Origin: Apostichopus japonicus
Taxonomy: Eukaryota > Echinodermata > Holothuroidea > Aspidochirotida > Stichopodidae
Direction: 5' to 3'
DNA: 64,000 nt
NCBI RefSeq assembly: GCF_037975245.1
Contig: NC_092580.1
Coordinates: 31,738,001-31,802,000, forward strand
The notes beneath the pieces are model-generated. The model was not told where the DNA came from. It saw only the letters and a list, made by a program, of their open reading frames with translations, and made no database searches. Both the position numbers and the translations under genes were made by a program. Below, in pieces: positions 17,001 through 29,000 of this stretch; within the stretch, counting starts at the first letter, position 1; every line of letters begins with the position of its first letter.

Positions 17001-20000
17001 ATGATAGCAGCAAGGAAAGTATGAACAAGAGCCCAAGGGCACTGCGGTTCCTTGCGCAGGGGTACATGACAATAAACAGAATTTTATCATAGCAAGATTG
17101 GGCTGAAATAGTCCAAGTTAAATTGTGGTATTCCAAGGGCACTGCGGTTCCTTGCGCAGGGGTACATGACAATAAACAGAATTTTATCATAGCAAGATTG
17201 GGCTGAAATAGTCCAAGTTAAATTGTGGTCCTACTTGTACCCATAAAGTAACCAACATAGCCAACACATTTGTGATCACAAATTGTGATCGGATTTTTGA
17301 TCGGGAAGGCACTTTTGAGATCTGAATGTGGCGTCGAAAATGTAAGAAATATAAAGTCACGTCCAAGCGGGTCAACAGATCTGATAACATTTGTGACCTG
17401 AGATCACATGACTGTTAAGTTTGAAAATGTTCTACCACCCCATTTACAACTTGTCCCAAAATATCAACCGTGTCACACCTTGGCACTAGGAGTTATTGCA
17501 TTAAATGCTCGAAATTAACTTGTGTCAAATTACTGAAAAAAGACAAATACTCAGATATCTCAAATACATGGATATTGTTTATTTTTTTCAAATACTAGAT
17601 ATAAACTGTACTGTTGTTATATAAAATATATGAACTTAAACTACACAACTATTTACAACTATATATAAAAGGAAAGAGACCATGTAGTGTTGATTGAGGT
17701 TTAATGGCAGTAAATGATTATGACTTTTTGTTTTAAAATAAATATTGTTGTAATGTAAGCCCCACCACTACCCGCCTGCTATCCATCCCCTCATTTCTTC
17801 CATGAACCATAAAAAGCTTGATATATTGTATTAACATATACTGCTTTCCTAACTAAACTTGGTTTTGGACAATTCTGCCAAAAAATGTAGACCAGAAATG
17901 AATAAATTATTAGGAACCCTTAAAATCTTAAAATCAAGAAATACAGAGTACTTTTATGTTGAACACCGTTGTCAGAACTGCAGGGTCTTTACACCTTGTT
18001 TTGAGGTAGAGCTGGATGAAGACATAGAGTTAGCTGAAGTGCTGGCAGATGGTATAGTTTTTGTGATTTTGGTTATTGTGCTTCCTTGTATTCTTCACAT
18101 CCTTCAGTCTGGAGCTTGTCCTCTATGGTGGCTCCTTCAAGAAAGCTGTGCGTTTTATCGGTTGGGAGGGTCAGCTATTGTAACTAATCTTTATTAAGTA
18201 TGGTGAATTGTATGTTCTTTTGGTCCATTTCTACGCTCACGTTTACTGAAGTTATGAGCCTAGTTTATGGCCCATGAATCTGCAATGAAAAGATTGTAGA
18301 AACAAATATTAACATGTTAATTCATTTGAATACCTGCAGTCTCTGAAAAAATAATGAGAAGTTAATGACCTTTTGTGTTTTCCATTTGAATGCTCTTTTA
18401 GGTTTGCTGTAACTACGAAAAACTGGTTTCATGACAATATACCAACATCAATTATTATAATTCCTGATTATAATGTTATTCGTAAAGATAGGACTGGCAA
18501 CGGGGTGGGCAGCTGGCCTCTATAACAAGGAGGGGGTATTTTTAAATCTGCCACGACATTAGTTGCCTATTGCCTATATGTCGAACAATTCAGGTTTCTT
18601 ACGCTTGTGCAGTGGCACAGTGGGCAAGGCGTTAGACTATGGATCATTTTGGTCTGGGTGGCAGAGGTTCGAATGCACTTTCTTTGTTTACACCAAACTA
18701 CAGATGCATTGTTATTTATAACTAATTTAATGTGCAAATTCAAAACACATATTTCATCTCTTTTAATTTTTGGGAGATTCGGCTGAAAAATTGTTTCATT
18801 TTGTACACACAAACTGGGTTTACCTCTAAGTTAGGGTATATCTGAAACTGATGGCTCTGTTCATCACCCTCACTTTAATATACCTGGTGAGAGGCTTGTG
18901 AGAAGAGGTGTATAATTTGCACTATAATTAGTGCTGCATTGATTCACTGACATATACAACAATCAAAAAGCCCTTTGTATTCCATGTGTGACCGACAAAT
19001 GTCTAACTTTTCAAGTTTGCTTTGAGTACTGGAGAAGTTATATGTTGTAAATATGATTGTCATTGATATGTATGGACTTGGATATTTGAAAGTTAACTTT
19101 CTGTTGCTTGCAAGTGAAGAATTGTTTGTGTCGCTACAAAATGCAGACAGTAATGAAACGTGATACCTTGTTGTCTTTAGCTTGATGTTGTTCTGGATTG
19201 TTAAATTTTGGTTCAAATTTGCAAGGTTAATCAAATTTGGTTGCAGTTTCATCAATTTTGTTCCATTTTTTAAAGAAATTAAAAATATTGTTCAAGTTTG
19301 TTCAATTGTTGTTAAAATTGTCAAAGTTATTCGAAGTGGTTAAATTTTTGTTCACGATTTGCTCAACCTTGTTCAAATTTTGGTCAAGGTTTGTTCAACT
19401 TTGTTCAAATATTATTCAAATTTGGTTAAAGTTTATTCAAATTTCGCTCACAGTTATTCAAATTTGGTTCAAGTTTGTTCAAGTTTTGGTAAGATTTGTT
19501 CAAATTGTGTTCAAGTTTGTTCATGATTGTTTAAATTTTGTTCTTGTTTTTTAAATACTTGTTAAAATTTGCAAGGTTCATCAAATGTGGTTTCAGTTTG
19601 ATCAAGTTTGTTCCATTTTTTTAAAGAAATATCATCAATATGTTCCACTTTTTAAAGAAATATAAAAGTTTCTTCAAGTTACTTCAAAATTGGGTTCAAA
19701 TTTGAGCACATAAGACATATGGTACACATATTTTGGTTTAACTTGTTGTGTTTTCATGGCAGTTTTGCAGAGAAATCCATGTTGCTTTGTGATCACTGTA
19801 ATAGCTCTCAAGGACTCCACTACCAATTGTTTTACTTGTAGGAATATTTGTGTAGATATGATCTAAGCATGAGTTATAATCTGTTGTAGGAGTGAGTATG
19901 ATTTGTTTGTATTTGAATGTTCTTGTTAATAAAGAGAGAAGGCTCTTTTTCTCTGGCGTGTTTTGGAGTACATCAACATTGAAATCACCAATAATCAATG

Positions 20001-26000: not shown

Positions 26001-29000
26001 CACATGCTGGAAATCGTAGCCATTTCCATTCACTACCAGATACAGCATATGTATAAATGTCAGTTTGTAAAACTTTTGCAGCAGTCATTATTTCCACTTC
26101 AGTAGCCCACACTGAATCATCTGACATATGAGATGTTTGCATATAATCCTGAACAGATTTACTAGTAGATGGTAGGTCACATTCCTGAAGAGATTGCACT
26201 ATCAAGCGTCTTAGGATATGATGATTATTTTCAGACTTTGTTATTATAAATGACAAAGATCTAAAGAAACAATTCCCATCACCTACTATTCTCCAAATAT
26301 TACATGGTCTTGCAGTATTAGTATACAATATTGGACTGCAAATATCTGGGAAATTTGGATAAGAACTGGTATGAATTTGTTCGTTTTTGTCTGTTATTAA
26401 CTGCTTTAATATAGCAATCTTTCCATCACGCCATAAGTCATCTGGAGGGAAGAAAGTAAACGTGTCATAAGTGTGTATACTTTGCAAGTTAATATCAGTA
26501 ATGTTCGATTGACCAACTGAATGTTGCTCTATTGCTTTTTCAGAGAGAGTTTTATTAGCATATTGTTGTGACTGGCAAGTTTGGTTTGATGTTATATTTT
26601 GCTTTGATTCTCTTCTTGTCTTGTTTCGCTGTCTGTAACTCAATTTTTTTGTTCGTGGCATGACAGAATATTGTGGACAATCTCCTTTCCGACAACAGTT
26701 TCTGTGGGATAGTAGTGTGTATATAGAGAGTGATTGACTGTAAATGCTGTTGTGGATTTTGGATATCTATCACAAGCATTTGATCAAAATGTGTGTTATT
26801 TTTTCTGGAATGGTTTTCTTTGCAATGTTGGAATTGAAGTACTTTTTGTATCTCTGTGAAGTTCTTGTTAATATTGTTTAGTTCTTTTTGTGTGCTTAAA
26901 ATTGATTTATGTCAAAGTATTTGTTGAGTCGCCTAGAAATGATTTCAAGAAGTGATAAGGATTTCTTAAAGTGGGTTTTAATTACTGTCAAGTAGTATGT
27001 GGTTTTCTATCAGAACTGTTTAAGAATACCTTTGATATATATGTTTCAAATTTTCCTTTTATTTTTATGATTATTTGCACTATACTTTGTTCTGATTGTC
27101 AGTAATTTTGAGCAGTTTTCCGGGTTTTTATTTGAAGTATTTTCAGTGCTTTACATATGCTTTGTTAGTAATTTGTAGCAGTTCTTTTGCTTTATTAGTA
27201 CTTTTGATATTTTTAGCTTTTTTCAGTACTTGTCAGCAATTTTTAGACATCAAGTTTGGATAATATTTGGCCTGATAAACTGCTGGTTTGATTGACCAAG
27301 TAAACTGTATAGTTATCTTAACATAAAGTGATAGCTAATAATAATCAACTTTAAACCAGTACTGTAAGCCCTGGGATGGCTTTATAGTTATCAACTTTAA
27401 ACCAGTACTGTAAGCCCTGGGATGGCTTTATAGTTATCAACTTTAAACCAGTACTGTAAGCCCTGGGATGGCTTTATAGTTATCAACTTTAAACCAGTAC
27501 TGTAAGCCCTGGGATGGCTTTATAGTTATCAACTTTGAACCAGTATTGTAAGCCCTGGGATGGCTTAATAAATATCAAGTTTGAACCAGTATTGTAAGCC
27601 CTGGGATGACTTAATGAAAATCAAGTTTGAACCAGTATTGTAAGCCCTGGGATGGCTTTTAATAAGATGGAACTTACACAGAACTTCAAGCCCTTGGGTG
27701 TTGAACTGGTATAGCTCACCTGCAAAATAAAAATACAGAAAAACAAACATGTTCTCAAGAAAAAATGACTGTGTCTAGCTTTAAGATCAGCCTACATGGG
27801 GTAGCTTACACTTATTGTCGCTCACCCCTACTTTTTCGCACAGCATAGAAAGTGGTGCCTTCTGCCTTTCAAACATGTAAACAGAAAACACTGAGAAAAA
27901 TTAGGCCTAATATTAATGTAATGTATTTCTCCATATCTCATTAACAGACTTCAGCATACTACTGTTGGTATAAGTTACGCCTATTCCAGCCTGATTAATG
28001 TGTGGGTTATCTAACTTTAAAGTTAAGCCTATCCTAGACTACATAAATTACCCATGGGCCTAGCCAATTCTGTTCGAGTTAAGAGTGGTCTTGATAAAAA
28101 TCTAACTAGGTGACAGTTATTTTCGTAAACCACGCCTGGTAATTTCTCTTACATACCATCCAACCTGAAGATTTTATTTGGCACTGAATCTCGACAATTG
28201 CAAAATACCAAGGAAACCTTAAACAACAGAAGGAAAGATATGTATACCTTGATTTGGAACAATATCGTTGACTCTGAAACTAGAACTTGAAGCTCTTGGG
28301 TGACTACTGTAATATAGCTCACCTGCAAAATACAAATAAAGGAAAATAAACATTATCTCAGAAAAAAATGGCTGAGTCTGGCTTTGGGGCCAGCCAACAT
28401 GGGGTAGCTTACACTTATTTTTCTGATTTTCTCCCACCTTTACTTTCCGCATACTGCTTAGATAATGGTGACTTTCTGGCTTCAAAACATGTAAACAAAC
28501 AACACTATTCTTGGACCGTTTCCATATTATTTTCATTAATGTAAATGACTGTACGTGCGGAAATTGATGAGAGGAAAGTACCAGGGGCGGAGCACAACTA
28601 AAACCTTCTTAAGACTAACAAGAGTAAGACATAGGCTAAGCCTAGATTCAATGAAGTGAACTTGAATTTTACAAACCTAGTAAAGTACTATGGCTTTTCC
28701 AAGGTCATTTGATTTCTCATCCACCTGGCTGCTAACATTAGTCAAATAACAAAATAAAAGGCCAAGGCTATTAATACATACATTTCCTTCAATACTCCTA
28801 GTTCTAGGCCTAATCCTGAAAACGTATTCAATATGTTTCTATACCCAACATTGCTGGTTGTTTACCCCAAAATTAACATTTCTATTACTATTTTTTTACT
28901 ATGGTTGGATTCCCCATTAAATTTTGGTCCTCAATCAATTACAACAAAATTTGTAAAGGACTTTTCTGAAATGTTTGGCTGAACTGAAAGTCTGACAGTG

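What the first reader, a model, noticed from the sequence alone, without database searches (positions are those of the whole stretch)
19738..26661. Intact single-ORF Helentron (OTU + repeat array + HUH Rep + Pif1 helicase + EEP) in DNM1L intron 8, sense to the host gene
Seen: 2307 codons without a stop, with every catalytic motif I checked present (OTU Cys/His, HUH, YxxxY, Walker A/B, GDFN, SDH). Known: the Helentron subgroup carries OTU and EEP domains. Inferred: the element is young and possibly active. Its sense orientation means every DNM1L pre-mRNA carries it, so it may be expressed or affect splicing of exons 8 and 9.
Basis: partly seen in the sequence, partly recalled or inferred. Interest (0 to 1): 0.72.

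Follow-up and report, generated by a model that had tools for sequence, protein, structure and literature searches.

The report
Intact Helentron transposon in DNM1L intron
A rolling-circle jumping gene with an unbroken 2,307-residue protein sits inside a long intron of a mitochondrial-division gene, probably an animal's; it is a well-kept member of a known transposon family rather than something new, useful mainly as a test piece for a transposon type that is little studied at the bench.

Summary
Window 26661-19738, MINUS strand, is one 2,307-codon ORF. DNM1L lies on the same strand; the ORF is in its eighth intron, 20 kb against 0.65-4.4 kb for ten others measured, so 'intron 8, sense' is right. 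It is a Helentron: the endonuclease is fused to RepHel and the published diagnostic Rep residues match ([18 protein letters not shown]4067079). A second Helentron, probably a eukaryotic contaminant in a Photobacterium MAG, aligns over 1,466 residues at 31% identity. OTU+endonuclease Helentrons are in print (PMC5148889, PMC6431247, PMC9741609). The element's ends are unresolved: the best candidate pair is no better than chance by similarity and reaches p about 0.05 with palindromy added. 'Young' is an inference: an unbroken ORF limits neutral divergence to roughly 0.3-0.9%. Copies, activity, expression and splicing effects could not be tested; no genome is held. Verdict: real, unusually intact, of a known kind.

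The parts
19738..26661 (-). Single 2,307-aa ORF of a Helentron (OTU, repeats, DUF6570, Rep, PIF1 helicase, EEP endonuclease)
25918..26283 (-). OTU-like cysteine protease region, aa 127-248 (D128-G-N-C131, H243)
   Evidence: Pfam OTU 127-212, E 4.5e-5; PDB viral OTU chains, E 2.3e-5 for the excised region; motif positions
25036..25728 (-). About eleven 21-residue basic repeats, aa 312-542, the outer ones degenerate (71 K/R and 33 D/E in 231 residues); two 63-bp units identical
24421..24798 (-). DUF6570 region, aa 622-747; cysteine-rich motifs [10 protein letters not shown] (570) and ICSTC (611) lie just before it
   Evidence: Pfam E 7.9e-20; motifs
22894..24024 (-). Helitron Rep region with HUH motif (aa 1059-1074, window 23440-23487) and YxxxY (aa 1248-1252)
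   Evidence: Pfam Helitron_like_N E 1.6e-27; motifs
20557..21876 (-). PIF1-type helicase; six motifs looked for (I, II, III, IV, V, VI) found
   Evidence: Pfam E 4.8e-23; PDB matches named PIF1 or AAA family ATPase, best E 1.2e-29; motifs
19786..20400 (-). C-terminal endonuclease/exonuclease/phosphatase (AP-like) domain
   Evidence: Pfam E 1.3e-9; motifs N, E, Y, GDFN, DH, SDH (motif names recalled)
19283..19563 (-). Degenerate TTTGTTCAAA-type tandem repeats after the stop codon, probably the 3' non-coding part of the element
   Evidence: membership depends on the unproven 3' end
18919..18934 (.). Candidate 3' subterminal palindrome GCACTA-NNNN-TAGTGC
   Evidence: only perfect match to this pattern in the window (with up to 2 mismatches 3 matches, 16 of 100 shuffles do as well); one of 7 palindrome entries in that flank, 4.9 in resamples; joint test 10 of 200; DNA fold of 18800-18960 z -2.55, 3 of 200 shuffles: suggestive only
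27070..27094 (.). Candidate 5' subterminal repeat, shares TATAGTGCAAATWAT with 18912-18926
   Evidence: 15-mer without mismatch only at these two places (with up to 2 mismatches 3 matches, mean 0.75, 3 of 100 shuffles do as well); similarity of the pair alone not above resamples; fold of 27030-27150 z -1.57

Best explanation
It is a full-coding Helentron, that is, a rolling-circle DNA transposon with an AP-type endonuclease, inserted in intron 8 of DNM1L in the same orientation as the gene. Inferred mechanism, by analogy with Helraiser and the published Helentron model: the EEP endonuclease or the HUH Rep nicks one strand at a T-rich terminus, a Rep tyrosine holds the 5' end, the PIF1 helicase unwinds, and replication displaces the element, which joins into a circle and is put into a new T-rich target. 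The Cys-rich/DUF6570 part and the basic 21-residue repeat array probably bind nucleic acid. The OTU domain probably removes ubiquitin (or cuts the polyprotein) and so protects or processes the transposase. Shown: coding capacity, motifs, position, orientation. Inferred: every functional step, recency, and autonomy. In DNM1L it most likely behaves as a passive passenger in a repeat-filled intron.
For: Unbroken 2,307-codon ORF with the Helentron core domains in the published order. The Rep motif matches the Helentron-diagnostic residues, including S between G and P. A second Helentron protein aligns over aa 833-2298 at 31% identity and 49% positives and keeps HUH, YxxxY, helicase and EEP motifs. 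Seven of the about eleven repeat units, compared pairwise, differ more at synonymous (pS 0.51) than at nonsynonymous sites (pN 0.21), pooled over 21 non-independent pairs: past selection on the protein. Under neutrality an intact ORF of this size has P<0.05 above 0.94% (no indels) to 0.30% (0.15 indels per substitution) divergence.
Against: No second copy, empty site or expression datum was available (no second copy in the window). Ends are not proven: the best direct pair scored 13, reached by 3 of 12 Markov resamples, the best inverted pair 13, reached by 4 of 12; with palindromy added, 10 of 200. No T-rich boundary was fixed. OTU and Rep structure predictions failed (mean pLDDT 33 and 32), so fold-level support is absent. 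Transposon OTU domains had not been tested for activity according to PMC9741609 (2022).
Confidence: 0.85

Rival explanations
1. The coding part is intact but this copy cannot move, because its ends are lost or decayed; it is a recent end-damaged or dead-on-arrival insertion. (This is a limit on mobility, not on Helentron identity.)
For: No convincing pair of subterminal inverted repeats: the best pairs are matched by resampled flanks; the 5' candidate is only half palindromic (2 mismatches to the pattern).
Against: The candidate pair is of the expected kind and lies on both sides of the ORF; Helentron ends are short and vary, so absence of proof from one copy is weak.
Confidence: 0.35
2. The ORF is a domesticated host gene kept by selection, not a mobile element.
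For: An intact ORF of 2.3 thousand codons, with repeat units under protein-level constraint, would also fit a selected gene.
Against: The transposition domains are kept together, Rep and endonuclease included; the ORF sits in one piece in another gene's intron with repeat arrays around it.
Confidence: 0.04
3. The insertion changes DNM1L expression: the sense-oriented element supplies a promoter, poly(A) sites or splice sites, giving truncated or chimeric DNM1L transcripts.
For: Sense orientation; 10 AATAAA and 5 ATTAAA motifs on the sense strand between 27150 and 18800, one AATAAA at 19437, about 300 nt after the stop codon.
Against: Such motifs are common by chance in AT-rich DNA and no control was run; the donor after exon 8 and the acceptor before exon 9 look normal by eye.
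Confidence: 0.12
4. It is a canonical Helitron or a Helitron2/proto-Helentron without endonuclease.
For: Shares Rep and PIF1 domains with these groups.
Against: C-terminal EEP domain present and Rep residues of the Helentron type; the one relative found here also has EEP.
Confidence: 0.02

Closest known systems
Helentrons with AP-endonuclease and OTU domain (PMC4067079: outline with abstract, passages and sections 6, 7, 16 seen; PMC5148889 and PMC6431247: passages seen)
   Same: RepHel fused to a C-terminal endonuclease, OTU cysteine protease, Zn-finger-like N-terminal region, diagnostic Rep residues, ORF over 2,000 aa reported
   Different: Ends not established here; an in-frame array of about eleven 21-residue basic repeats stands between OTU and DUF6570, a feature not mentioned in the passages I saw; no second ORF of 150 aa or more that could be RPA
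Zebrafish DrT1/DrT2 Helentrons with herpesvirus-tegument-like deubiquitinase (VTD) domains (PMC9741609, passages seen)
   Same: Helentron with a deubiquitinase-type domain in the transposase ORF; DrT2 has an OTU domain besides its VTD
   Different: No VTD listed at E up to 1 in Pfam or PDB; OTU only. I did not check that a VTD model or structure is held in those libraries
Helentron fragment in contig CAMQXY010000195.1 (L004), listed as uncultured Photobacterium MAG
   Same: RepHel-EEP aligned with aa 833-2298 of the window protein, 31% identity, core motifs shared
   Different: Contig begins inside the protein, so OTU and repeat array cannot be compared; host unknown, probably a eukaryotic contaminant
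Helraiser (bat Helitron; PDB 7lcc)
   Same: HUH Rep plus PIF1-type helicase; the helicase part matches at E 4.3e-7
   Different: Helraiser is a canonical Helitron without endonuclease or OTU (recalled)

Membership tests
Helentron | AP-type (EEP) endonuclease fused to the C-terminus of RepHel | tested here: met
   Exo_endo_phos 2090-2291 in the same ORF
Helentron | Diagnostic Rep residues: [FY]-x-R before ExQxRG, and S between G and P before HxH | tested here: met
   [15 protein letters not shown], aa 1059-1073
Helentron | HUH Rep with two tyrosines and PIF1 helicase motifs | tested here: met
   shared with L004
Helentron | 12-15 bp palindromic subterminal inverted repeats | tested here: inconclusive
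   candidate pair 18912-18934 / 27070-27094
Helentron | Short palindrome near the 3' end | tested here: inconclusive
   fold of 18800-18960 z -2.55, but the terminus itself is unknown
Helentron | Insertion in TT / T-rich target without target-site duplication | not testable with these tools
   no empty site or second copy; no genome held
Helentron | RepHel groups with Helentrons in a phylogeny | not tested
   only one relative was found (L004); pairwise comparison only
OTU deubiquitinase | OTU sequence profile with catalytic Cys and His (and DGNC Asp) | tested here: met
   Pfam just above cut-off; viral OTU chains E 2.3e-5; C131, H243 (catalytic roles recalled). H243 lies outside the Pfam match. 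Activity not testable
VTD-carrying Helentron | herpesvirus-tegument-like deubiquitinase domain | tested here: not met
   no such match listed at E up to 1 in Pfam or PDB; presence of a VTD model in the libraries not checked, and a very divergent one is not excluded
Canonical Helitron / Helitron2 | no endonuclease; L instead of S before P in the HUH motif (Helitron) | tested here: not met
   endonuclease present, S present (criteria)

The most novel reading that the evidence does not exclude
This is a living, autonomous Helentron whose transcript can ride on DNM1L transcription: its OTU domain is an active deubiquitinase that protects or self-processes the transposase, and the expandable basic 21-residue array tunes DNA binding, so that array length (two units are identical, hence recently duplicated or homogenised) modulates activity between copies.
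Probability: 0.1. Interest if true: 0.6.

Novelty: new member of a known kind. Interest (0 to 1): 0.27.

Why it matters
A search of the held library for 'Helentron' with 'transposition assay' found 0 papers, and transposon OTU domains were reported as untested in 2022 (PMC9741609). An intact natural copy could be put into a cell assay as it stands, without a reconstructed consensus, and would let one ask what the endonuclease and OTU domains add to rolling-circle transposition. The element itself is of an expected kind.

Tried and rejected
Relatives: the search for related loci in viral contigs with the whole protein (six peptide patterns, 8 stretches, 0 confirmed) and with the two-row alignment A1 (two peptide patterns, 238 stretches, 0 confirmed); DNA patterns in viral contigs (2 stretches; 0). 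Of the two, L001 has a 328-aa ORF with an HUH motif among small genes, which I read as a filamentous-phage-like Rep, and in L002 the match lies in a 48-aa ORF, no ORF there reaching 200 aa; both dropped. In genome contigs 2 stretches matched. L003 (Nocardia) holds an open 581-residue frame with VEPQRRGAPHIH, an actinobacterial HUH protein with A where Helentrons have S; my first look at it was in the wrong frame. It was dropped as not a Helentron. L004 is a real Helentron. Phages (414 records) and plasmids (1 record at E up to 1e-20): in the rows listed, 20 of 414 and 1 of 1, the match lies within aa 1596-2079, the helicase part; residues 2-687 gave no plasmid match at E up to 1e-5. PF14214 over 398 genomes of the phylum of G001: 3 matches at E up to 0.001, 1 over the cut-off (G001 itself, the genome of L004), 0 of 14 control genomes. 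The two weaker matches were not followed.

Ends: best direct pair between the 1.3-kb flanks scores 13 and best inverted pair 13 (a different pair); 12 first-order Markov resamples gave 10-15 (direct) and 10-16 (inverted). With a palindrome required on the 3' side, 10 of 200 resamples reached the observed value. This was a test after the candidate had been seen. The 46-bp array at 27344-27659 may lie outside the element or in its 5' part; not decided.

Structures: OTU alone and Rep with a two-row alignment gave mean pLDDT 33 and 32; not used, and no fold search was made. Rfam: 0 matches at gathering scores; tRNA: 0; NCBIfam: 0 at E up to 0.1. A tblastn of the protein against the window found no second copy at E up to 0.01.
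Full report
What is there. The ORF at 19738-26661 lies on the minus strand and codes for 2,307 residues without a stop. The nearest in-frame stop upstream is 36 codons before the ATG, and no in-frame ATG occurs in the 300 nt before it. At the local base composition the chance of such an open run is about 10^-75; the longest stop-free run in window 1-19000 and 28001-64000 is 459 codons and belongs to another gene, a glycosyltransferase-92 ORF. Pfam gives, in order, OTU (127-212, E 4.5e-5), DUF6570 (622-747), Helitron_like_N (880-1076), PIF1 (1596-1809) and Exo_endo_phos (2090-2291). 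The OTU call is the weakest by Pfam, but the excised region matches chains named viral RNA polymerase, whose OTU domains are nairovirus-type proteases (recalled), at E 2.3e-5; four weaker matches (E 0.0022 to 0.021) span residues that include the candidate catalytic His.

Where it is. DNM1L matches lie on the minus strand from 48672 (ATG) to 8009, in gene order except for a partial duplicate near 8700; residues 518-629 of the query found no match. Eight matched exons precede the ORF, query residues 1 to 292 being covered without a gap; exon 9 starts near 15548. The intron is 20,048 nt between match edges, against 650 to 4,363 nt for the other ten introns measured. The donor after exon 8 and the acceptor before exon 9 look normal by eye. 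So the ORF is in the eighth intron, in sense.

What it is. Thomas et al. 2014 (PMC4067079; abstract, passages and sections 6, 7 and 16 seen) describe Helentrons by a C-terminal AP-type endonuclease fused to RepHel, and give Rep positions that separate them from Helitrons. The window protein reads [15 protein letters not shown] there and carries the endonuclease, so both tests are met. One relative was found by scanning prokaryote genome contigs with that motif: a 4,691-bp contig binned as a Photobacterium MAG (the other of the two matches, L003, is a bacterial HUH protein). The open 1,533-residue frame of the contig has Helitron_like_N, PIF1 and Exo_endo_phos and aligns with aa 833-2298 of the window protein at 31% identity. 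I take it as eukaryotic contamination: among 398 genomes of the same phylum only that genome passed the Helitron_like_N cut-off (two more had weaker matches), and 0 of 14 control genomes did. The contig starts inside the protein, so the N-terminal part has no comparison.

The N-terminal half. Between OTU and DUF6570 stand about eleven 21-residue repeats (aa 312-542), coded by 63-bp units, the outer ones degenerate; over aa 301-520, 52% of residues recur at a distance of 21, against 4-8% at 19, 20 and 22. The array has 71 Lys/Arg and 33 Asp/Glu in 231 residues. Two units (438-458 and 459-479) are identical in DNA. Seven of the units, compared in 21 non-independent pairs, differ more at synonymous sites (pooled pS 0.51) than at nonsynonymous ones (pN 0.21). 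So the array still grows or homogenises and was held by selection on the protein. I recall similar basic repeats in N-terminal parts of Helitron-like proteins of other invertebrates; that comes from no call.

Age. With a transition weight of 2, 4.6% of substitutions in this ORF would make a stop. If the copy evolved without constraint since insertion, an intact ORF has under 5% probability above 0.94% divergence with no indels, 0.54% with 0.05 indels per substitution, 0.38% with 0.10 and 0.30% with 0.15. This supports youth only if the copy is neutral; it says nothing about mobility.

Ends. The published marks are 12-15 bp palindromic subterminal repeats, a 3' palindrome and a TT target. A perfect 6-bp-stem palindrome, GCACTA/TAGTGC, lies at 18919-18934, and the 15-mer TATAGTGCAAATWAT occurs without mismatch only at 18912-18926 and 27070-27084, on either side of the ORF. 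With two mismatches allowed, the 15-mer and the palindrome pattern match 3 times each, as 3 and 16 of 100 shuffles do. The pair's similarity is no better than in resampled flanks (3 of 12 reach it), and with palindromy required 10 of 200 did as well, in a test made after the candidate was seen. The 5' copy is only half palindromic. I therefore leave the ends open. In the 8.2 kb between the two candidate sites only the main ORF and one antisense ORF over the repeat array (25084-25764, TTG start) reach 150 aa, so no intron-less RPA gene of that size is present.

How it probably works. Rolling-circle transposition by HUH Rep and PIF1 helicase, with the endonuclease choosing or nicking T-rich sites, is the model proposed for Helentrons. 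The OTU role is open: Thomas et al. suggest polyprotein cleavage or signalling to chromatin; PMC9741609 (passages seen) showed that zebrafish Helentron VTD domains are active deubiquitinases, notes that OTU domains occur besides or instead of them, and says transposon OTU domains were untested. Deubiquitination that protects the transposase is the reading I favour.

Novelty. OTU together with endonuclease in Helentrons, in proteins that can exceed 2,000 aa, is in print (PMC5148889 figure legend; PMC6431247). Insertions of non-autonomous Helentrons in non-coding parts of oyster genes are also in print (PMC7492417, passages). What is left is an unusually intact single copy with an in-frame repeat array, and a host-gene position of uncertain effect. 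The finding is sound and ordinary; interest is modest.

Noticed in passing
window 11905-12483 (minus strand, DNM1L exon 12 region): The 3' part of DNM1L exon 12, its splice donor (GTAAGA) and adjoining intron are tandemly repeated four times (145-bp unit, 97% match); the copies encode [17 protein letters not shown] (first) or [17 protein letters not shown] in what I recall as the variable domain, and could act as an array of alternative exons or be a fresh duplication.
   Followed up: partly
window 48904-48986 and 49868-49948: Inverted repeats of about 83 bp, 96% identical, with a CCAAT-type sequence, about 230-1,280 bp upstream of the DNM1L start codon; a foldback element or an inverted duplication of promoter sequence.
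   Followed up: partly
window 31572-34663, with a related 132-bp piece at 17390-17521: Large nested tandem array (two about 1.2-kb copies, 90% identical, with smaller repeats inside) in the same intron as the Helentron; it may be the central repeats of another element.
   Followed up: no
window 27344-27659: 46-bp tandem array, 6.9 copies, 95% match, about 700 bp upstream of the Helentron ORF; whether it belongs to the element is undecided.
   Followed up: partly
window 60121-60466 and 60851-61220: Long inverted repeat, about 90% identical, in a GC-richer stretch; a possible foldback element.
   Followed up: no
window 8453-8784: 98-bp tandem duplication that overlaps and partly copies a DNM1L C-terminal exon.
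   Followed up: no
L004 (CAMQXY010000195.1): A Helentron is binned in a public Photobacterium MAG: probable eukaryotic contamination of the assembly.
   Followed up: yes
window 26029-26301 (OTU region): Of the ten best solved-structure matches of the OTU region, nine are named viral RNA polymerases and one ubiquitin thioesterase; the only animal OTU protein listed, OTUD1, is 18th of 20. E-values are weak (2e-5) and PDB sampling is biased.
   Followed up: no
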